Origin: Sphingomonas jatrophae
GTDB lineage: Bacteria; Pseudomonadota; Alphaproteobacteria; Sphingomonadales; Sphingomonadaceae
Reading direction: 5' to 3'
Assembly (NCBI RefSeq): GCF_900113315.1
Contig: NZ_FOZG01000003.1
Span: forward strand, 496,001-560,000
Length of the DNA stretch: 64,000 bases
A program made the position numbers and the translations under genes. Positions 6,735-15,814 of the stretch are shown piece after piece (position 1 is the stretch's first letter; each line of letters begins with the position of its first letter). The notes under the pieces were generated by a model. That model was not told where the DNA came from. It was given only the letters and a program-made list of their open reading frames with translations, and ran no database searches.

Positions 6735-8573
6735 GTGCTGCACTTCGGCAGGAAATTGTTCGGTCGCAAGGGCGTGGCGGATCACCCTGCTCCGGATGCT
6801 GCCGCGCCCCCGACCCGCCTGCGCAGCTTCCTCCGCCCCAGCGAAACAGAGGCGCCCCAGCCCGGCACGATGACGTTCGACCGGCTGCTGGGCGAACTCA
6901 CCCGCTCGACCAGGGACGGCCAGGTCGGCGCCTATGCGTTCAAGACGCCGCTGGAACAGCTGTCCCCGTCCGAGCGGATGGAGGTGATTGTTTCGCTGGC
7001 GGACGAGATGGCGGAGCTGAAGGGGTATGTCGTCGGCAGCCCGAGCGATCGCGCCAGCCAGATGGAATATTGCTACGCCACCTGCCTCAAGAGCGAGATC
7101 GTCGCCGACAAGGAGCATCTCGGCTCCCTGATTACCTGCCTGGTTGGCAGCGATCGTTACCACCGCTCCTATCGGCAGGAGGAGTTCGGCGCACTGATGG
7201 CGCTGATGCGGCAGGCCGTGAAAGCGGGCGGCTTCCTCACCTCGGACGATTGCGCCAGCCTCGCGGCGTTCGCCACCACCTTGCGGACGGCGGCCGAGAA
7301 GGAACGCGGCAAGCCCGACAAGAAGGCGCTCATCGCACGCGCCGAGGCGATCGAGAAGTTCGCCGGCGTGGAGGTCTCCGCCACCTCGCTGCTGCTGGAA
7401 CGCTGCGAGCCGGCAGAAACGGGCCGCACACTCGGCCCCTGCCCCGAACATTACCTCTTCTGGTGCCGCCTGCTCGCCGCCACCGCACACGGCGTCGCAG
7501 CCATAGCGGAGGATGTGAAATCCAAGCGGCGTGTGGCCTGGATGAGCGACCCGACCGCCTTTGCCGAACGCTTCCCCGCCGCGGGGCCGCTCACGCCGCG
7601 GTTCCGCCAGTGGGAAGATCCGGCGCTTGCGGAAGATGCGCGCAACTTCGCCCGACTGCGTCGAATGCTGCGCGACAAGCGGAACGGGCTCGTCGCTCCG
7701 GCCGACTTCCTCGCGCTGCCGGGCAAGCGTCCGCTCGTCGAGCCGATGTTCCGCTTTGACTGGCGGACGCCCAATCTGCCCGCGCTCGACCGGCTGGGCG
7801 ACCTCGAAGACCCGCAGCAGACCGCTCTGCTCGAGCAGCTCATCTCCGCCCGAAATGCGCCGCGCCCGACCGCCAAGTGGCTGAAGCAGATCGTCGCGGC
7901 AGCCGAGGCGGTCGGCATGTCGGCGGTGGAGGCGCGGCTGCATGACTGGCTGGCGCTGTTCCACACGCCGGTGACCAGCCCGACGATCCTCGCCGATGCG
8001 CTCAACATCGACGAGATGGACCGCGGCGTCGCCCACCTCAACGCGCTGCTGCCGCACTGGCCGGTCGAGATCGGCGAGGATGGGATCGACGCCGCTGGGC
8101 ATGCGCTGGCGGTGGAGTTGGCCAGCGGCAATCCGTCCGCCTTGCCGACGCCACTCACGCTCGAGCTGTTCGCCTATAACGACGATTACTGGGAGGGGCG
8201 CAGCCCGACGCGGGGGCGGCTGAAGCTGATCGTGCCCAAGGATCCGCGCGATCGCTGGTCGTCGCCGAGTATCTTCTCGTGGCAGGCCGTCTCGATCGAG
8301 AATGAGCAGCCGCTGCGTGGCGCGCTGTGGCTGGTCGCGCGGATGCCGGATCGGGCGCGTGCGATCGACGCGATCGAGCGGACTGCGCTCTCCGCCGCCT
8401 GTCGGCTTCACCTCGGCGACAACAGCCACCGCTCCAAGGTGGTCGCCAACGCCGCCATCGCCACGCTGATCGACATGGGCGGTGCGGACGTGCAGCCGGC
8501 GATCCTGCGGCTGTCGCGCGCGATCCCGGATCGGACGATCAATCCGCCGCTGATCAAGGCGCTGAACGGCTGA
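6735..8573 (+). CDS. Uncharacterised 612-aa protein with DUF4132-like helical C-terminus
   Basis: A soluble, mostly helical protein with no membrane segment or signal peptide. The GTG at 6735 follows a strong GGAGGGG; there is no close ATG before residue 47. The N-terminal half is not recognised. The middle (AKWLKQIVAAAEAVG, then LHDWLALF) and the C-terminal 110 residues (LGDNSHRSKVVANAAIATL, then AIPDRTINPPLIKAL) read like the HEAT-type repeats of DUF4132 proteins, a family that in MolR-type proteins also carries a WGR domain. A WGR domain sits at the C-terminus of the convergent helicase whose stop lies 10 bp away, so the two may be parts of one system. The homology is inferred from memory of the pattern; the function is unknown. 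Confidence 0.75.
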   Translation: MLHFGRKLFGRKGVADHPAPDAAAPPTRLRSFLRPSETEAPQPGTMTFDRLLGELTRSTRDGQVGAYAFKTPLEQLSPSERMEVIVSLADEMAELKGYVVGSPSDRASQMEYCYATCLKSEIVADKEHLGSLITCLVGSDRYHRSYRQEEFGALMALMRQAVKAGGFLTSDDCASLAAFATTLRTAAEKERGKPDKKALIARAEAIEKFAGVEVSATSLLLERCEPAETGRTLGPCPEHYLFWCRLLAATAHGVAAIAEDVKSKRRVAWMSDPTAFAERFPAAGPLTPRFRQWEDPALAEDARNFARLRRMLRDKRNGLVAPADFLALPGKRPLVEPMFRFDWRTPNLPALDRLGDLEDPQQTALLEQLISARNAPRPTAKWLKQIVAAAEAVGMSAVEARLHDWLALFHTPVTSPTILADALNIDEMDRGVAHLNALLPHWPVEIGEDGIDAAGHALAVELASGNPSALPTPLTLELFAYNDDYWEGRSPTRGRLKLIVPKDPRDRWSSPSIFSWQAVSIENEQPLRGALWLVARMPDRARAIDAIERTALSAACRLHLGDNSHRSKVVANAAIATLIDMGGADVQPAILRLSRAIPDRTINPPLIKALNG

Positions 8574-8590
8574 GCGGGAGCCCTCAGCCG
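8567..8590. terminator. Hairpin spanning both stop codons of convergent genes
   Basis: CGGCTGAG and CTCAGCCG form a perfect 8-bp stem around an 8-base loop. The stem contains the TGA stop of the plus-strand gene and the stop of the helicase on the minus strand. There is no T-tract, so it may act as a bidirectional barrier rather than a canonical intrinsic terminator. Confidence 0.5.
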
Positions 8591-11500
8591 GCCTCCTGAT
8601 AGCCTTTGCGCGTCTTCTCCAGGGTCAGCTTGGTGGCTTCGCGGCGGGCGCGCGCCTCGTCCTCGAACGACTTGATGACGCGCTGGCCCTTGGTGCCGAT
8701 GCGGCCGAACTCGACGATCAGGTCGCCGCCGTCGACCCCCACGCGCCAGAACTTGTTCGATGCCCCTTCGACGAGGCGATATTCGGTGAGGCCCGCCCCA
8801 GCCGCACTGGCTGGCACTTCGACAGCCGCAGCGACGGGGTGGGCGAAGGCGCCCGGAGCCGCCGCCGGCCCCGTCTCGCCATCGGGCGCCAGCGCGACGC
8901 CGGCATAAGGATCGTCGTCGGCAAGATCCCAACTGGACCGGGCCAGTTCCGCCTCGACCCGCTCGATCGTCTCGTCGCGCGCGCGTAGCCACGAGGCGAC
9001 GGGCACGTCGATCACGCGCCAGCCGAACGCGCGCAGGATCGAGGGACGGAAGACGAAGCGTTCCTCCACCGCCCGCTCGGCGCTGTCGCGGTCGAGCAGG
9101 ATGCCGAGTGCGTAGCTGGCGCCATCCGGCGCGACGATCGCAAGATCGCAGCGGAAGCTGGCGCTGCCGACATGCTCGCGCACGTCGTGGCCGCGCGCAC
9201 GCAGCGCATCGGCGATGGCGTGGCGCACCGCATCGGCGGGCGGCGCGGTGCCGAAGGCGCGTGCGGCATCGGGATTGAGCGTCGTCAGCACCGCCTGCGC
9301 ATGCGCCGCCTCCCCGCTCGACTGCGCCTCGGCGAAGGTGAGGAAGCTGCGCAGCGCGCGCGCGCCGTCATTGTGGACGTTGGTGATCGCCTCGGGCGCG
9401 ATGCTGGAGACGATCGCCATGTGGCGGCGCGCGCGGCTGAAGATGACGTTCAGGCGCTTCTCGCCGCCGCGCTGGTTGATCGGGCCGAAGTTCATCGCCA
9501 TCCGCCCGTTGCGGCCGGGCGCGTAGCAGACGCTCATGATGATGATGTCGCGCTCGTCGCCCTGCACGTTCTCCAGGTTCTTGACGAACAGGCCGCTATG
9601 CTGCCCATCGTCCTCGCGGACATATTCCTGTTCGACCGCGGCGGCGAAGGCCGGATCGGCCGCCGCCAGCCGATCGAGCGCGCCCTCGATCTCGCTCTGC
9701 TGCGCCTCCGAGAAGGCGACGATGCCGAGCGTCGCGCCGGTGCCGCGCGCCAGCAGCTCGCGCACCAGCCCGGCGATATAGGCGGCCTCGGGCGGATTGA
9801 TGCGGCCTTCATAGCGTCCGTCGGCGATGCGGTGCGCGGTGATCGGCGCGGCGAGCAGGCGATCGGTGCCTGTCGCCCATCCGCCTTCATCGTCGGAGCG
9901 GACGGGTGCGGCCGGGCCGCTCGCCGTGCGCAAATCGCGATCGGGTATGGTGACGAGCTGGCCGGCGTAGAAGGCGGCGTTGGAGAAGCTGATCAACGCT
10001 TCCGAGCGGCTGCGATAATGCCAGGCGAGCAGGGTGGCGGGCAGGTTGCGCGCCGCCTGGTTGAGCAGGCTGTCCGCATCGAGCAGGATGCCGATCCGCT
10101 CGCCATCCTCCTCCACGATCACGCTGGCCTCCTCTTCCCCGAGCGAAGCGGAGAAGAAGTTCGTCGGCGGCAGCTGCATCTCGTCGCCGACGATGACGAC
10201 CTGGGTGGAGCGGCAGAGCGCCGGCACCGCCTCCTCGACGGGGATCTGGCTCGCCTCGTCGAAGATCACCACGTCGAACAGATCGGTGCGCAGCGGCAGC
10301 GTGTCCGAGACGGACAGCGGGCTCATCAGCCAGATCGGCTTCAGATCGTTGACCACCGCGCCCGAGGCGCTGCTGACCAGATCGCGGATCGAGCGGTGGC
10401 GCATCGTCTTGCCGAATTCATGCTCCACCTCGCGGCGGCCGGCGGCGAAGAGCTTTTTGAACTCGCGGCCAGCCGGATCGAGCAGGGTCACCGACGTCTC
10501 GGATGCCTTCACATGATCGCGGAACGTGCGGTGGAGCGTCGAGCGGATCGCGTCGGCATTCTCCTTGCGCAATCGGGTGCGGGCGGCGGCGGCCCGGCGG
10601 GTCGCCTGGACGAGCCGGGCGATGTCGAAGCGGCGGATCTCGGGATCGCTCCGCTCGATCCGCGCGATTGCCTCATCGACGACCAGCGCCTCGATTGCGG
10701 TGAGCGGCAGGCGGAGTTTGCGGAGCGCGCCGGCAAAGGTGGGATCCGCGCGGTGCAGGTCGGCCAGCACGGGGAGCAGATCGGGCAAATCGCCGAGCGA
10801 TTCGCGCAGGTCGCGCAGCAGCTCGCCCGCCGCGTCGAAGGTGAGCGGGTTTGTGTCGTCGAGGATGCGGGTGGCGGTGTCACGCAGTTGCGCGAGGGCG
10901 TCCGCCTGCGCCGCCATGGCGGCGATGGCGGTGGCGCCCGCGACCAGCATCGCCTGGATGAGCGGGCTGCGCGCGCCGCCGGTGAGCTCGGCGCGCAGGG
11001 TGAGCAGCGCGTCGAGATCGCCGGTGTGCAGCTTCGCCCGCAAGGCTTCGGTTGCGGTGTCGAGCGCATCGCCCGCATCGTGCGAGGCGGCGAGCAGCTG
11101 GAGGACAGTGCCGATCTTCGGCGGCACGGCATGCGCGGCGAAGTCGTAGCGTGCGGCGACATTGGCCTTCAGCGCGCGCCATGGGCCGCTGAGAAATGCG
11201 AAGAACGACCCCTCCTTCTCCTCCGCCAGCGCCAGCGCCGCCGCATTGTCCGTCCGCGAAAAGGCATCGCGCCAGTTCGCCGCTTCTGCCGCGGCGGCGG
11301 CAGCACGGGTGCGGAGCCGGTCTAGGTCGGCGAGATCGGCGTCGAGCTGGCGGGAGGCGACGGTGGCGGGATCGAGCAGATCGGGCGACGCGGCGAGCCC
11401 CGTGCGGACCAGCCGTGCCGCCAGGGCCCCGGCCTCGGCCGCCTCGGCGATCGGCGTGGCGCCCGAGACCGGCGCCTCGCCGCGCTCGATCCAGTCCTCC

Positions 11501-14028
11501 AGCCGCTGGAGCAGCGTCTCGGCCGCGTCGATCGCGGTTTCGATGCGCGCGTAAGGCTGGTCGCCCGTCAGCGTGGCGGCGGTCAGCGCGGCGAAGGGAT
11601 GCGCGGCGAGGCTGTCGGCGCCGGCATGATCGCGCAGCGCCCGGGAGATGCGCTCGGCCAGTGCGCGGTGCGCATCCCACACCGGCAGCGTCGGCAGCGC
11701 CTCACGCTGGCGCGGGCCGAACGCATCGGGCGGGGGCGGCAAGGCGGCGGCGCGGCGGACGAGCGTGCGCAGGCTCTGTGGTTGCGCCGCGCCCACGGCG
11801 GCATCGTAGCGAGCGATCGAGTCCAGATGCTGGGCCAGCGCCGATCCGGTGCGCGCGCGGATCGCGCGGTGCCGGTCGAGCGCGTCGTCGCTCGTCCCCC
11901 AGCTTTCATAATGGGTCTTCAGGTCGGCGATGAAGCCCTTCTTGTCCTCCTGCGAATCGTGGATGATGCAGGCAAGGCCGTCGAGCCCGGCCTGCCCCAA
12001 CCGGTGGAACACGACATCGAGCGCGGCGCGCTTCTCGCAGACGAACAGCACGCGTTTGCCGCGGCCGGCATAGTCCGCGATCAGGTTGGTGATCGTCTGC
12101 GACTTGCCGGTGCCGGGCGGACCCTGGATGATGAAGTTGCGGCCCGTGCGGGCGAGCGCGACCGCGGCATCCTGCGTCGCGTCGGACGGTACGACGCTCC
12201 ATTGCTCGGGCGCGGGGATTGGCGGCGGCGCTTCCTGCGTGAAGGGCCGCGGATCGATCGAGAAGACCTGGTCGAAGGCGGGCAGATCGGACGGTGCGTC
12301 GATCAGCTGTGAGAAATCGCGCACCAGCGACATCTTGCGATAGTTCAGGTTGGCCAGCGTGACCTGCGTAAGATCGATCTCCCACGCGAAGCGATGACCC
12401 TCGTCGACACCCGCCGAATAGGTCAGCGCCTCCGTCTCGGCGACCATCCGCGCCGGGCCCTGCCGCAGCGATCCGCCAGCGGCGAGCCGTTGCGGCAGAG
12501 GCGCCGGCTTCACGAATTTTTCGAACAGCGCGAGCCCGAGCGGCCGATAATCGTCGCGGTCGTAGCTGAAATCGGTCCGCGTGCTCACCGCCTCGCGCGT
12601 TCCCCGGCGGCGATTGAAGCGGTTGACCCGCTGGATCGCCTTCTGGAGGATCAGCCGGATCTGCGGCCGCTCCTGCAGGTCGAGCCGCACGCCCGGTTCG
12701 CTGCGGTGGATCTGTGCGGCCAGATCGGCATGGATGTCCGCCAGCGAGACGGTCGCGAGGTCAACCTCCTCGGGCAGCTGGATGTCGTAGAGCTGGCGCA
12801 GCATGTGGCGCAGCGCCGGATTGTATTCGGCCACCGTTTCGGGGCAACGCAGCACATATTGATCGCGCACGCCCTTGGCCTTGGCGATCTCCACCGGCAG
12901 CCACAGGAGCGGGGAGACGATCCGCTCGTCCGGCGCTTCCTTCAGATTGTGCCAGCGCAGGAAGCCGATCACCAGCCTGAGGTGGTTGAAGCCATATTCG
13001 GCGCGGTCGCGACGCGTTTCCTGGATGATCCGGTCGAAGGCGGAGGGCAGGTGCGGCTGATCCTCGAAGCGCAGCCATTTGTTGAGCGGCAGCGCCTTGC
13101 CCGCCAGCACATCGTCGACGAAGCGGCCCTGCCACGTGCACAGCCGATCGGCGCGCACCGCCTCGATCCGCATGACGATGGGGATGCTCGCCTCGGTCAG
13201 GTTCACGCTCGATTGGGTCGGGCGGAAGTGGATCAGGCGGTTGCGGCGCGACAGATCGAACAACCGGTCGCGCAGGTGCGAGAGGACGGCGACGCGGCGA
13301 TCGGGCACCGCCTTGGCGTCGGCCAGCACGCGGTCCACATCCAGATCGACCGGCTGGTCGCGATAGGTCTCCAGCCGGCGGGCGAGCCCGGCAAGATCGG
13401 TTGCGCGGTCGTGGCGGTTGAGCGCGGTCGCCTCGACGATGATCGACGCGACCACCGGATGCAGCCGCGGCGCGATGGCGAACAGGTTGCTCCGGTTGAA
13501 CGAGAAGCGCTCGATCGCCGCCGGATCGCGCGGATCGAGCGCGCAGGCGGCGCAGGCGAGCAGCATGCCGATCTGAAAGACATCGGTGATCTCGTCATGA
13601 TGACCGAGCTCGATCTCCCAACTGCGCAGATCGGTGAGGTAGATGGGCTTGACGAGGGTCTCGCCATCCGCGCGCGCGCGCAGATCGTCCACCCGCGCGC
13701 CAGCATCGCCACCGTGGGTGACGCGATATTCGCCGACAACCTTCAGTGCCGAACTGGCCTGCGGCTGCACCTGATGGATCGCGGCCATGTTGGCGGTGGG
13801 CACGATGCCTGCCGGGTCGGTCAGGCGGAAGCGGCCCTCGGCATCCTCGATCACGTCGGCGAGACCCAGCCGGGCGACGCGACCCTGCTCATGCAGCGCG
13901 GCGACCTGCCGCATGAGCGGCAGCATGGCATGGACAAGATCGTCGGTCGGCAAGCCACGGCCGAGACCGGCGAGAACGGTGCCGATCCCGGTGGGCGCAA
14001 CGGATGCGTCGTTCGCGTCCATCGTCAT
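8584..14028 (-). CDS. Giant SF1 helicase: kinase-like / DUF4011 / helicase / Vsr-like / WGR
   Basis: An 1,814-residue cytosolic protein. Order of parts: residues about 20-235 resemble the C-lobe of a Ser/Thr kinase (LHEQG, then GRFRLTDP, EITDVFQIGMLL and RHDRATDLAGLARRLETY) without an N-lobe, HRD or DFG; about 250-600 is a DUF4011-like region starting LRDRLFDLSRRNRLIHF; the UvrD/Dna2-like (COG1112) helicase has Walker A GPPGTGKS (636-643), DEAS Walker B (1253-1263), GDEMQLPPT (1281-1289), WHYRSR (1336-1341), NLENVQGDERD (1484-1494) and RLNVIFSRARRHM (1525-1537); about 1590-1690 looks like a Vsr/REase-type fold; 1748-1811 is a WGR domain ending in FGRIGTKGQR. A long helical insertion splits the two RecA lobes. 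ATG 14028 overlaps the upstream peptidase stop as ATGA. Helicase motifs are complete; the kinase-like part and perhaps the nuclease-like part look catalytically dead. A defence or nucleic-acid surveillance role is inferred. Confidence 0.9.
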   Translation of the reverse strand: MTMDANDASVAPTGIGTVLAGLGRGLPTDDLVHAMLPLMRQVAALHEQGRVARLGLADVIEDAEGRFRLTDPAGIVPTANMAAIHQVQPQASSALKVVGEYRVTHGGDAGARVDDLRARADGETLVKPIYLTDLRSWEIELGHHDEITDVFQIGMLLACAACALDPRDPAAIERFSFNRSNLFAIAPRLHPVVASIIVEATALNRHDRATDLAGLARRLETYRDQPVDLDVDRVLADAKAVPDRRVAVLSHLRDRLFDLSRRNRLIHFRPTQSSVNLTEASIPIVMRIEAVRADRLCTWQGRFVDDVLAGKALPLNKWLRFEDQPHLPSAFDRIIQETRRDRAEYGFNHLRLVIGFLRWHNLKEAPDERIVSPLLWLPVEIAKAKGVRDQYVLRCPETVAEYNPALRHMLRQLYDIQLPEEVDLATVSLADIHADLAAQIHRSEPGVRLDLQERPQIRLILQKAIQRVNRFNRRRGTREAVSTRTDFSYDRDDYRPLGLALFEKFVKPAPLPQRLAAGGSLRQGPARMVAETEALTYSAGVDEGHRFAWEIDLTQVTLANLNYRKMSLVRDFSQLIDAPSDLPAFDQVFSIDPRPFTQEAPPPIPAPEQWSVVPSDATQDAAVALARTGRNFIIQGPPGTGKSQTITNLIADYAGRGKRVLFVCEKRAALDVVFHRLGQAGLDGLACIIHDSQEDKKGFIADLKTHYESWGTSDDALDRHRAIRARTGSALAQHLDSIARYDAAVGAAQPQSLRTLVRRAAALPPPPDAFGPRQREALPTLPVWDAHRALAERISRALRDHAGADSLAAHPFAALTAATLTGDQPYARIETAIDAAETLLQRLEDWIERGEAPVSGATPIAEAAEAGALAARLVRTGLAASPDLLDPATVASRQLDADLADLDRLRTRAAAAAAEAANWRDAFSRTDNAAALALAEEKEGSFFAFLSGPWRALKANVAARYDFAAHAVPPKIGTVLQLLAASHDAGDALDTATEALRAKLHTGDLDALLTLRAELTGGARSPLIQAMLVAGATAIAAMAAQADALAQLRDTATRILDDTNPLTFDAAGELLRDLRESLGDLPDLLPVLADLHRADPTFAGALRKLRLPLTAIEALVVDEAIARIERSDPEIRRFDIARLVQATRRAAAARTRLRKENADAIRSTLHRTFRDHVKASETSVTLLDPAGREFKKLFAAGRREVEHEFGKTMRHRSIRDLVSSASGAVVNDLKPIWLMSPLSVSDTLPLRTDLFDVVIFDEASQIPVEEAVPALCRSTQVVIVGDEMQLPPTNFFSASLGEEEASVIVEEDGERIGILLDADSLLNQAARNLPATLLAWHYRSRSEALISFSNAAFYAGQLVTIPDRDLRTASGPAAPVRSDDEGGWATGTDRLLAAPITAHRIADGRYEGRINPPEAAYIAGLVRELLARGTGATLGIVAFSEAQQSEIEGALDRLAAADPAFAAAVEQEYVREDDGQHSGLFVKNLENVQGDERDIIIMSVCYAPGRNGRMAMNFGPINQRGGEKRLNVIFSRARRHMAIVSSIAPEAITNVHNDGARALRSFLTFAEAQSSGEAAHAQAVLTTLNPDAARAFGTAPPADAVRHAIADALRARGHDVREHVGSASFRCDLAIVAPDGASYALGILLDRDSAERAVEERFVFRPSILRAFGWRVIDVPVASWLRARDETIERVEAELARSSWDLADDDPYAGVALAPDGETGPAAAPGAFAHPVAAAVEVPASAAGAGLTEYRLVEGASNKFWRVGVDGGDLIVEFGRIGTKGQRVIKSFEDEARARREATKLTLEKTRKGYQEAG

Positions 14029-15218
14029 GCCGCCTTCCGCGCGGCGGAGACCAACCGGTCGATCGCGCCTTTCTGCCAATGAAGGTCGCGCTTCAGGGCG
14101 AGGCGGAATCGGTCAAGCCCGTCGAACGCCGCAGCGGTGCGCGCGGCGGCGGTGAGCACCGCGTCGCGCGCATCGGCATCGGCCATGGCACAATCCAGCA
14201 TCAAGGCGACGAGATAGTCGCGCGTGGCATCGTCGATGCGGTCCGCAGCGATGTCCGCCTGGTCGATCGGCGCCTCATCCGGCTGGAAGTCGGGGAAGAA
14301 GCTGCGAACCTGGGTCAGCACGCTTTCCCCACCCACGCCCGGCTGCGTGAGGAAGCGGGCCAAGAAGCGGCGGGTGAGCGCCGTCAGCTGCTTCTGCCGC
14401 AGCAGATCGAGCGTCTCGATGGAGAGCGGCCCATGCAGCCGCCGCTCCAGCCATGCGTCGAGATCGGGCGCCTGCTGCCACCACAGGCTGAGCGCGCGGG
14501 CGCGCAGGAAAGCCTCCGGATGCGAATGGCCCTGCGACTTGAGATCGCTGCTCTCCAGCTCCTCGGCCTGGCGGAGGTAGGCGGCGGGATCGACGCTGGC
14601 GAGGCCGGTCATCGTCTTGACCAGCACCGACACGGCCGGCTCCACCGCCTGCGCGGCGATGGCGGCGCCGCGATCGGCATATAGCTCGGTATGCAGGCTG
14701 AGCAGACGCGCCGTCTCGCGGTGCGCGGGTGCGGCATCGCCATAAGCGACGGTCTGGTCGAGGATGCGGCTGGCGTTGAAGAAGGCGCCGTCCTCCGCCC
14801 CCCACAGCCGGTAATGCGCCAGTTCGTGCCCCATCAGGGCCAACAGCTCGTCAGGCGTCAGCTTTTCCAGGATCGGCCCGCTGAAGATCAGGTGGATCTC
14901 GCCGGGGATATAGCAAAGCCCGGCGTTCATCGTGCCGTCCGACGCCTGGTACAGCGTTATCGGCGCGTCGATCGCGAGCCGCTCCATCGCGGTGCGGCAG
15001 GCGGCGAAGGCCGCGGCATGCCCTTCGGGCTCAAGCCGGTAGGTTTCCCGCAACATGGCGGCACGCACCTCGTCCGCCTGCGAACGGCGCATGTCGACGG
15101 ACTGCGACCAATCCCACACCGCGGGTTCCGCGGTGCGGAGATAATCAACCAGATCCTTGTGATAGCGAAGCGGCTGCAATGCTTCGTCGGAGGGCACGCT
15201 AGCTGCGACGATCGCCAT
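14025..15218 (-). CDS. Soluble M48-type zinc metallopeptidase coupled to the helicase
   Basis: A 397-residue protein with HELAH (residues 131-135) and a downstream TELYADRGA whose Glu178 fits as the third zinc ligand, the M48 peptidase arrangement. Unlike HtpX or Oma1 it has no membrane segment and no signal peptide, so it should act in the cytosol. The remaining C-terminal 200 residues are helical and not recognised. It is the first gene of the operon and its stop overlaps the helicase start (ATGA), which implies fixed stoichiometry and probably a physical or functional partnership. The start ATG 15218 follows GAGGGTGGGG. It could be a protease released when the helicase senses damage or foreign nucleic acid, but this is inference. 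Confidence 0.88.
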   Translation of the reverse strand: MAIVAASVPSDEALQPLRYHKDLVDYLRTAEPAVWDWSQSVDMRRSQADEVRAAMLRETYRLEPEGHAAAFAACRTAMERLAIDAPITLYQASDGTMNAGLCYIPGEIHLIFSGPILEKLTPDELLALMGHELAHYRLWGAEDGAFFNASRILDQTVAYGDAAPAHRETARLLSLHTELYADRGAAIAAQAVEPAVSVLVKTMTGLASVDPAAYLRQAEELESSDLKSQGHSHPEAFLRARALSLWWQQAPDLDAWLERRLHGPLSIETLDLLRQKQLTALTRRFLARFLTQPGVGGESVLTQVRSFFPDFQPDEAPIDQADIAADRIDDATRDYLVALMLDCAMADADARDAVLTAAARTAAAFDGLDRFRLALKRDLHWQKGAIDRLVSAARKAA

Positions 15219-15367
15219 TCCCCACCCTCGCTCCGCGCCGGCCCGGTTCCGGCGCTCTACGCACCAAGTCTAGAGCTTGTGCCGCCACGCGCTAGCAGGC
15301 GCGAGCCAGACGTTGCGCCCTCCTCGGCTACGGACGCTCTTGGGCGAGGGGGCCCACCGCCGCAAAG

Positions 15368-15814
15368 TCAGGCGACGGCGCTATGCTCTTCCTCAAGCGC
15401 CAGCCGGTGCAGCGTTTCGAACAGATGATCCGCGCTCATCCGCGACGGATCGTAGCCGCTCGCCACTGCGATGCCGCCATAACGCTCCGCATCCGCCGCA
15501 CGCGTGCCGACGAAGCCCATGGCCCAGTTCGGGAAGGCGCGGGCGTCGATGGCATCGAAGCCCAGCAGCGATACGTCGCTGTGCCGCGGATCGCGCTGGA
15601 TGCGTTCAAACGTCGCTTCCACGGCGCGGCGCGACCCTTCGAGCACCTGGCCGAAGCAGCCGGCGTTGAACAGCAGCGCGCCGGTGACGCCCGCCGGCGC
15701 ATTGTTGCGCTGGCTGGTGGCGAGCACGGACCGGACGCCGTCAGCGAACCTTTCCACCTCCTCGCCCATCCGGGTGCGACTGTAGTAAACGAGTCGATAC
15801 AGGTCTTCGCTCAT
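15368..15814 (-). CDS. BLUF-domain blue-light photosensor
   Basis: A 148-residue stand-alone BLUF protein. It keeps the flavin-switch residues: Tyr10 in LVYYSR, Asn38 in RNNAPAGVTG, Gln56 in CFGQVLEG, and the Trp97/Met99 pair in PNWAMG. It should bind FAD and respond to blue light. The start overlaps the stop of the upstream PAS-GGDEF-EAL gene as ATGA, so sensor and cyclic-di-GMP enzyme are made together. This is a split version of the fused BLUF-EAL enzyme known from BlrP1. About 40 residues follow the core fold, enough for capping helices or a partner contact. Confidence 0.92.
   Translation of the reverse strand: MSEDLYRLVYYSRTRMGEEVERFADGVRSVLATSQRNNAPAGVTGALLFNAGCFGQVLEGSRRAVEATFERIQRDPRHSDVSLLGFDAIDARAFPNWAMGFVGTRAADAERYGGIAVASGYDPSRMSADHLFETLHRLALEEEHSAVA

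What the first reader, a model, noticed from the sequence alone, without database searches (positions are those of the whole stretch)
6735..15218. Possible undescribed system: kinase-like/helicase/nuclease-fold/WGR giant, coupled M48 peptidase and DUF4132-like partner
Seen: three large cytosolic genes sit together. An M48-type peptidase and an 1,814-aa SF1 helicase overlap by ATGA, and a 612-aa protein converges on the helicase 10 bp away. Known: COG1112/DUF4011 helicases with kinase or nuclease parts occur in antiphage systems such as Mokosh, and WGR and DUF4132 domains occur together in MolR-type proteins. Inference: WGR on the helicase and DUF4132-like repeats on the partner suggest one system, with the helicase as sensor and the peptidase as effector. 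I know of no described system with exactly this trio.
Basis: partly seen in the sequence, partly recalled or inferred. Interest (0 to 1): 0.85.

Follow-up and report, generated by a model that had tools for sequence, protein, structure and literature searches.

The report
Helicase–peptidase operon with optional partner
A very large DNA-helicase-like protein is always encoded together with a cytosolic zinc peptidase as a rare two-gene unit that moves between bacteria, here with a third gene, and it looks like an undescribed DNA-surveillance system that acts by cutting protein rather than DNA.

Summary
The three genes are real and placed as described. The M48-family peptidase and the 1,814-aa DUF4011/SF1 helicase form an obligate pair. 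In 298 genomes of the host's order both occur in the same 5 genomes; in 199 Pseudomonas genomes both occur in the same 8. All 41 loci found by a collection scan have the peptidase directly upstream of the helicase, usually with an ATGA overlap. The pair is patchily distributed, sits at many sites, is horizontally transferred and is under purifying selection. The 612-aa gene is an add-on in most alphaproteobacterial loci only; it is related to the helical half of split DUF4132 systems but has no DUF4132 domain. The helicase's "kinase" is a C-lobe-only pseudokinase fold, and its MTES_1575 nuclease fold lacks the usual catalytic Glu, while the peptidase's HExxH...E site is invariant. I therefore favour a sensor helicase that controls or positions a protease effector (Hachiman-like logic), most likely defence against foreign DNA. 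The alternative is DNA–protein-crosslink or other genome maintenance. The loci are not in defence islands, and none was found on plasmids or phages, so the defence role is not established. No named system in PADLOC, NCBIfam or the searchable papers contains this pair.

The parts
14025..15218 (-). M48-family (gluzincin) peptidase, 397 aa, cytosolic, no TM or signal segment; conserved ~150-aa C-terminal extension
   Evidence: Pfam PF01435 31.5 bits > cutoff 20.3; max 19-residue hydropathy 1.25; full-length homologues in 41 loci
14814..14828 (-). HELAH (HExxH) zinc/catalytic motif, residues 131-135; the third ligand E178 (TE..AD) is at 14685-14687
   Evidence: H131, E132, H135, E178, A181, D182 invariant in 21 diverse homologues
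14025..14028 (-). ATGA stop/start overlap of peptidase and helicase
   Evidence: an in-frame ATG in ATGA in about 26 of 41 loci, 13-nt overlap in Pseudomonas loci
8584..14028 (-). DUF4011/COG1112-type SF1 helicase, 1,814 aa
   Evidence: orthologues about 50-66% identical over most of the length
13357..13998 (-). helicase residues 11-224: pseudokinase (kinase C-lobe fold, no N-lobe, HRD/DFG not conserved)
   Evidence: AF2 model pLDDT 81; top 45 Foldseek PDB hits at E<=0.001 all kinases; VIA Z 16.1 to PknB; non-conserved catalytic positions
12799..13266 (-). DUF4011 domain
   Evidence: PF13195 63 bits
12100..12123 (-). Walker A GPPGTGKS (residues 636-643)
   Evidence: invariant in 41 helicases
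10249..10260 (-). Walker B DEAS (residues 1257-1260)
   Evidence: invariant in 41 helicases
8944..9219 (-). REase_MTES_1575 (Vsr-like nuclease fold), probably inactive: RCDLA...GILLD lacks the Glu of the usual GIExDG..YH
   Evidence: Glu replaced in all homologues shown; a canonical relative keeps GIECDGAAYH
8590..8769 (-). WGR domain at the helicase C-terminus; absent in Variovorax orthologues
   Evidence: PF05406 59.6 bits
6735..8573 (+). 612-aa all-helical accessory protein, convergent, related to the helical-repeat half of split DUF4132 systems; no DUF4132 domain

Best explanation
This is a horizontally transferred helicase-peptidase operon, with an optional third gene in Alphaproteobacteria. 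Shown: the M48-type peptidase and the DUF4011/SF1 helicase are an obligate, overlapping, co-evolving pair with intact peptidase and helicase motifs, a pseudokinase C-lobe, a nuclease fold that has lost a usual catalytic acid, and usually a C-terminal WGR. Inferred: the two proteins form a complex in which the helicase surveys DNA (the motor plus WGR and nuclease folds recognising ends, nicks or replication intermediates, the pseudokinase as scaffold). On meeting foreign or abnormal DNA it releases or positions the peptidase, which cleaves a DNA-bound, phage or host protein. The 612-aa helical protein is a fast-evolving adaptor or regulator borrowed from DUF4132-type systems. The most likely role is defence against phages or other mobile DNA, with a protease as effector, the logic of Hachiman with a peptidase in place of the nuclease.
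For: Same 5 of 298 genomes carry the peptidase and the helicase N-domain; same 8 of 199 Pseudomonas genomes (in one, G863, both genes are broken). 41/41 contig loci have the pair side by side. ATGA coupling. Distance-matrix correlation of the two proteins r=0.99; dN/dS about 0.04-0.21 for both. Catalytic HExxH...E invariant; nuclease Glu lost and no conserved kinase catalytic residues, leaving the peptidase as the only apparent intact effector enzyme. Helicase relatives are named antiphage proteins: ProA 690 bits, Hhe 442 bits, PADLOC PDC-S37 648 bits. Patchy presence (5/298, 8/199, 17/81 genomes), different flanks in most Pseudomonas loci, and a Rhizobium copy nested among Erythrobacteraceae indicate transfer and loss. 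Hachiman shows a helicase can hold an effector until it meets damaged DNA (PMC12278908, abstract seen).
Against: Neighbours of the loci are mostly housekeeping genes, with few PADLOC matches. No orthologue on 72,556 plasmids or 50,697 phages, or in IMG/VR. In Variovorax the pair sits at one conserved place next to dnaE, which is unlike a fast-moving defence gene. No direct evidence of complex formation, protease substrate or phage phenotype. Loss of Glu in the nuclease fold does not strictly exclude activity, and ProA-type helicases share the loss.
Confidence: 0.5

Rival explanations
1. Genome-maintenance protease: the helicase runs along DNA and delivers the M48 peptidase to DNA-protein crosslinks or stalled protein-DNA complexes, a bacterial analogue of SPRTN/Wss1 (proteolysis-coupled repair) and not a defence system.
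For: Soluble metallopeptidase obligately tied to an SF1 helicase with a WGR domain (WGR binds DNA ends in PARPs, own knowledge); weak SprT-like match E=0.037; fixed place next to dnaE in Variovorax; not in defence islands. WGR/DUF4132 relatives are in DNA-damage regulons (PMC8533742).
Against: Very patchy distribution is unusual for a repair function; no LexA-like box upstream of the peptidase in the loci or the window, apart from one loose match in L021; helicase relatives are antiphage proteins.
Confidence: 0.22
2. Toxin-antitoxin-like or abortive-infection module: the peptidase is toxic to the host (for example cleaves a translation or replication factor) and the helicase, or in Alphaproteobacteria the convergent 612-aa protein, restrains it.
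For: Tight coupling and coordinated decay in G863; the 612-aa protein evolves about twice as fast (dN/dS 0.15-0.39 against 0.04-0.21), as expected of a partner under changing specificity.
Against: The 612-aa protein is dispensable in most lineages; no small antitoxin-like gene is conserved.
Confidence: 0.15
3. The three genes are neighbours by chance, or a core housekeeping locus.
For: The 612-aa gene is convergent, not co-transcribed, and missing from most lineages.
Against: Peptidase and helicase always co-occur; the 612-aa protein is beside them in 9 loci and otherwise found only as two distant homologues among 298 genomes; present in under 2% of the order, so not core.
Confidence: 0.02

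Closest known systems
ProA antiphage protein (NCBIfam NF058533) and PADLOC candidate PDC-S37
   Same: DUF4011-family SF1 helicase with C-terminal MTES_1575 fold; the Acinetobacter ProA-type protein has also lost the nuclease Glu
   Different: Window protein scores 690 bits against the ProA cut-off of 1500; its N-terminal pseudokinase half is outside the best aligned part (match starts at residue 548); it has a WGR and an obligate M48 partner, which is absent beside the relatives examined
Hhe (NF042953)
   Same: DUF4011 helicase with MTES_1575 domain, antiphage
   Different: 442 bits against a cut-off of 2000; Hhe model has no peptidase partner
Mokosh (MkoA/MkoC)
   Same: kinase-like plus helicase architecture as recalled from the literature; helicase part matches MkoA at 121 bits
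   Different: Only the helicase core matches; kinase part is a C-lobe pseudokinase; partner is a peptidase, not the PLD nuclease MkoB (recalled)
Hachiman (HamAB)
   Same: proposed logic: sensor helicase controls an effector (PMC12278908)
   Different: Unrelated effector (nuclease there, M48 peptidase here) and different helicase family; analogy only
MolR-type / WGR-DUF4132 proteins
   Same: WGR domain; 612-aa protein is homologous to the helical partner of split DUF4132 operons (hhalign prob 99.5, E 1.4e-22)
   Different: No DUF4132 or DUF7737 domain at this locus; direct link to fused DUF4132 proteins not significant
SPRTN/Wss1 DNA-protein-crosslink proteases
   Same: soluble metallopeptidase that would act on DNA-bound protein with a DNA motor (analogy)
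   Different: M48 rather than SprT family (SprT-like E=0.037, below threshold)

Membership tests
M48 peptidase family (PF01435) | Pfam profile above gathering score, HExxH plus downstream Glu ligand | tested here: met
   31.5 bits > 20.3; invariant H131 E132 H135 E178
M48 peptidase family (PF01435) | membrane or periplasmic location typical of HtpX/Ste24/BepA (not required of all M48) | tested here: not met
   no TM-like or signal segment, max hydropathy 1.25; simple hydropathy only
DUF4011/COG1112 SF1 helicases | DUF4011 domain plus AAA_11/AAA_12 helicase core with Walker A/B | tested here: met
ProA (NF058533 equivalog) | score above curated cut-off 1500 bits over full length | tested here: not met
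   689.6 bits, main match 548-1698; Pseudomonas and Variovorax orthologues 687 and 681 bits
Hhe (NF042953 equivalog) | score above cut-off 2000 bits | tested here: not met
   442 bits
Mokosh | full MkoA/MkoC match and MkoB PLD partner | tested here: not met
   MkoA best stretch is residues 1235-1544 only; the partner in all 41 loci is M48, and no other gene family recurs across lineages
DUF4132 / MolR-type | DUF4132 domain (PF13569) | tested here: not met
   no Pfam match in the 612-aa protein at E<=1
DUF4132 / MolR-type | helical repeat partner of split DUF4132 operons | tested here: met
   profile match to L079 protein E 1.4e-22, whose overlapping neighbour is DUF4132+DUF7737
Protein kinases | catalytic residues (N-lobe Lys, HRD, DFG) | tested here: not met
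   fold is kinase C-lobe (Z 16.1) but the HRD/DFG positions vary and there is no N-lobe
Hachiman | HamA nuclease and HamB helicase profiles | tested here: not met
   no Ham match in PADLOC for any of the three proteins
Defence system | phage or plasmid restriction phenotype | not testable with these tools
   needs bench work
Defence system | location in defence islands | tested here: not met
   150 nearest neighbours of 28 loci: few PADLOC matches, mostly housekeeping Pfam families; no formal background rate computed

The most novel reading that the evidence does not exclude
A helicase-licensed protease immune system: an SF1 helicase whose own kinase and nuclease folds have degenerated into sensors senses foreign DNA and switches on, or delivers, an M48 metallopeptidase that destroys phage or host proteins. 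That would be defence by proteolysis under control of a DNA motor.
Probability: 0.4. Interest if true: 0.85.

Novelty: new variant of a known kind. Interest (0 to 1): 0.62.

Why it matters
DUF4011-type giant helicases are a recurring part of antiphage systems, but how they act is mostly unknown. A clade that has kept the helicase, lost kinase and nuclease chemistry and become inseparable from a cytosolic zinc protease would separate sensing from killing and make the mechanism testable with two point mutants. If defence is confirmed it adds proteolysis to the effectors driven by DNA-surveying helicases. If it is repair instead, it would be a horizontally spread bacterial DNA-protein-crosslink protease.

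Tried and rejected
(1) Single-sequence genome-contig scan with the peptidase found nothing; the alignment scan worked. (2) Plasmid, phage and IMG/VR searches for orthologues: peptidase none in any of the three, 612-aa protein and full-length helicase none on plasmids. (3) PDB profile searches for peptidase and 612-aa protein: no match at E<=1. (4) AF2 of the 612-aa protein: low confidence (pLDDT 59.5, pTM 0.39), helical only, not used for fold search. (5) WGR and 612-aa gene as one linked feature: rejected, WGR occurs without the gene in Gamma/Betaproteobacteria. (6) LexA-type operator upstream of the peptidase: none in the window or the loci, bar one loose CTGN10CAG match in L021. (7) Empty-site analysis: no congeneric genome held; the DUF938 homologue of the window and the best EAL homologue lie on different contigs in G304 and G301, so no empty site shown. 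(8) Direct homology of the 612-aa protein to fused DUF4132 proteins: best E 0.017 in the expected stretch, not significant. (9) Literature: no paper with DUF4011+WGR, PDC-S37 or the ProA antiphage protein; the library holds open-licence papers only.

Full report
What is there. The window lies in a 4.06-Mb genome of Sphingomonadales affinity (nearest named carriers are Erythrobacteraceae). Their base composition does not differ from neighbours (GC 0.68-0.70, GC3 0.84-0.87). Flanking genes are ordinary: ABC exporter with DUF3526, TonB receptor, DUF938, BLUF, GGDEF/EAL, metallophosphatase, M20 peptidase; no tRNA.

The proteins. Helicase: DUF4011, split SF1 core (Walker A GPPGTGKS and DEAS invariant in 41 orthologues), REase_MTES_1575 and WGR. 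Its first 225 residues fold as a protein-kinase C-lobe: AF2 pLDDT 81 from 17 homologues, all 45 PDB hits with E<=0.001 are kinases, VIA Z 16.1 to PknB, with residues 11-224 on the C-lobe. There is no N-lobe, and the positions of HRD and DFG are not conserved, so it is read as a pseudokinase. The nuclease fold keeps its first Asp (RCD; Glu in one sequence) but has L/V where a canonical relative has Glu (GILLD against GIECDGAAYH). A ProA-type Acinetobacter protein shares this loss. Peptidase: cytosolic, HExxH and E178 invariant in 21 diverse homologues, with a conserved C-terminal extension. No solved structure matches its profile. 612-aa protein: no database family, predicted helical but at low confidence.

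Co-occurrence. In 298 genomes of the order, full-length peptidase homologues occur in G000, G126, G165, G207 and G286 (six further hits are only short weak matches, mostly around HExxH). The helicase N-domain occurs in exactly those five. In 199 Pseudomonas genomes the peptidase (one further weak short hit) and the helicase N-domain occur in the same eight. If independent, the chance of such identity is about 5e-11 and 2e-14, although the two genes are adjacent and of course inherited together. In G863 the peptidase is split by a frameshift and the helicase is truncated, so both decay together. A collection scan gave 41 loci from Alpha-, Beta- and Gammaproteobacteria; all have the helicase directly downstream. 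That scan used two short peptide patterns, so 41 is a lower bound. ATGA or 13-nt overlaps predominate. Pairwise distances of the two proteins correlate at r=0.99 and both are under strong purifying selection.

The third gene. 612-aa homologues lie convergent and 3-455 bp from the helicase end in the window, L012, L016/L013, L017, L018, L019/L014, L021, L023 and L056. They are absent beside the pair in Brevundimonas (L022), in G165 (L015) and in all Beta/Gammaproteobacterial loci, and were not found elsewhere in 12 such genomes. In 385 alphaproteobacterial genomes only the window's own genome had a hit. In the order sample, two distant homologues (G214, G092) are each followed by an overlapping 484-aa DUF4132+DUF7737 gene; the profile match is E 1.4e-22. 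It evolves about twice as fast as the pair (dN/dS 0.15-0.39 against 0.04-0.21). WGR does not track it, and Variovorax helicases have lost WGR.

Mobility and context. Presence is 5/298, 8/199 and 17/81 (Variovorax) genomes, and 1/180 in a phylum sample. Flanks differ among most Pseudomonas loci. The Rhizobium rhizogenes helicase is nested in Erythrobacteraceae (SH-aLRT 91 for the local group, 95 and 100 for the enclosing ones). Variovorax copies, in contrast, sit at one place between a PBP gene and dnaE. The 150 nearest neighbours of 28 loci give only scattered PADLOC matches, and the nearer half that was scanned against Pfam is mostly housekeeping families. No orthologue of the peptidase is on plasmids or phages, nor of the other two on plasmids. 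The pair therefore behaves as a stand-alone accessory cassette, not as a defence-island resident.

Interpretation. Since kinase and nuclease sites look degraded while helicase and peptidase sites are intact, the simplest working model is a DNA-surveying helicase that controls or delivers a protease. Hachiman is the mechanistic precedent: a sensor helicase holds an effector until it meets damaged DNA (PMC12278908, abstract). Family relatives (ProA, Hhe, PDC-S37) and sparse, transferred distribution favour defence. The absence from defence islands and the fixed Variovorax locus keep genome maintenance (a SPRTN-like role) alive. I put about 0.5 on defence, 0.22 on maintenance, 0.15 on a toxin-like module.

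Known or new. The helicase is a relative but not a member of ProA or Hhe (scores far below curated cut-offs). The peptidase and the 612-aa protein are in no PADLOC or NCBIfam model above threshold. Open-licence literature has no match. I rate it a new variant of a known kind (helicase-centred surveillance systems) with an unusual protease partner.

Noticed in passing
L078:7825-11098 and L079:9129-12384: A split DUF4132 system: a ~620-aa helical protein overlapping a 484-aa DUF4132+DUF7737 gene, conserved in two sphingomonad genomes; in L078 a TIR-TPR protein gene (13594-15636) is nearby.
   Followed up: partly
G863:C1:443734-445693 (Pseudomonas): Both peptidase (frameshift) and helicase (open frame only 887 aa) are broken in the same genome, coordinated decay of the pair.
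   Followed up: no
L015:4868-7456: The G165 copy of the pair lies near a phage tail-sheath protein gene (862 aa), possibly a contractile-tail element.
   Followed up: no
L043, L045-L055 (Variovorax), helicase C-terminus: Variovorax helicases lack the WGR domain and sit at one conserved chromosomal place between a penicillin-binding protein gene and dnaE.
   Followed up: partly
L039:5674-9711: A 1,345-aa protein with an M48 domain is encoded upstream of the pair, on the other strand, in Lysobacter sp. Root690.
   Followed up: no
L084:11409-17757 (Acinetobacter baumannii plasmid): A ProA-like DUF4011 helicase lies beside WYL and ThiF-family genes on a plasmid, a defence-like neighbourhood unlike that of the M48-coupled clade.
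   Followed up: no
window:15371-20565: A BLUF photoreceptor gene, a PAS-GGDEF-EAL gene and a GAF-GGDEF gene lie close together beside the operon, a possible light-responsive c-di-GMP cluster.
   Followed up: no
window:227-3815: Two tandem ABC-2 permeases with DUF3526 and an ABC ATPase.
   Followed up: no
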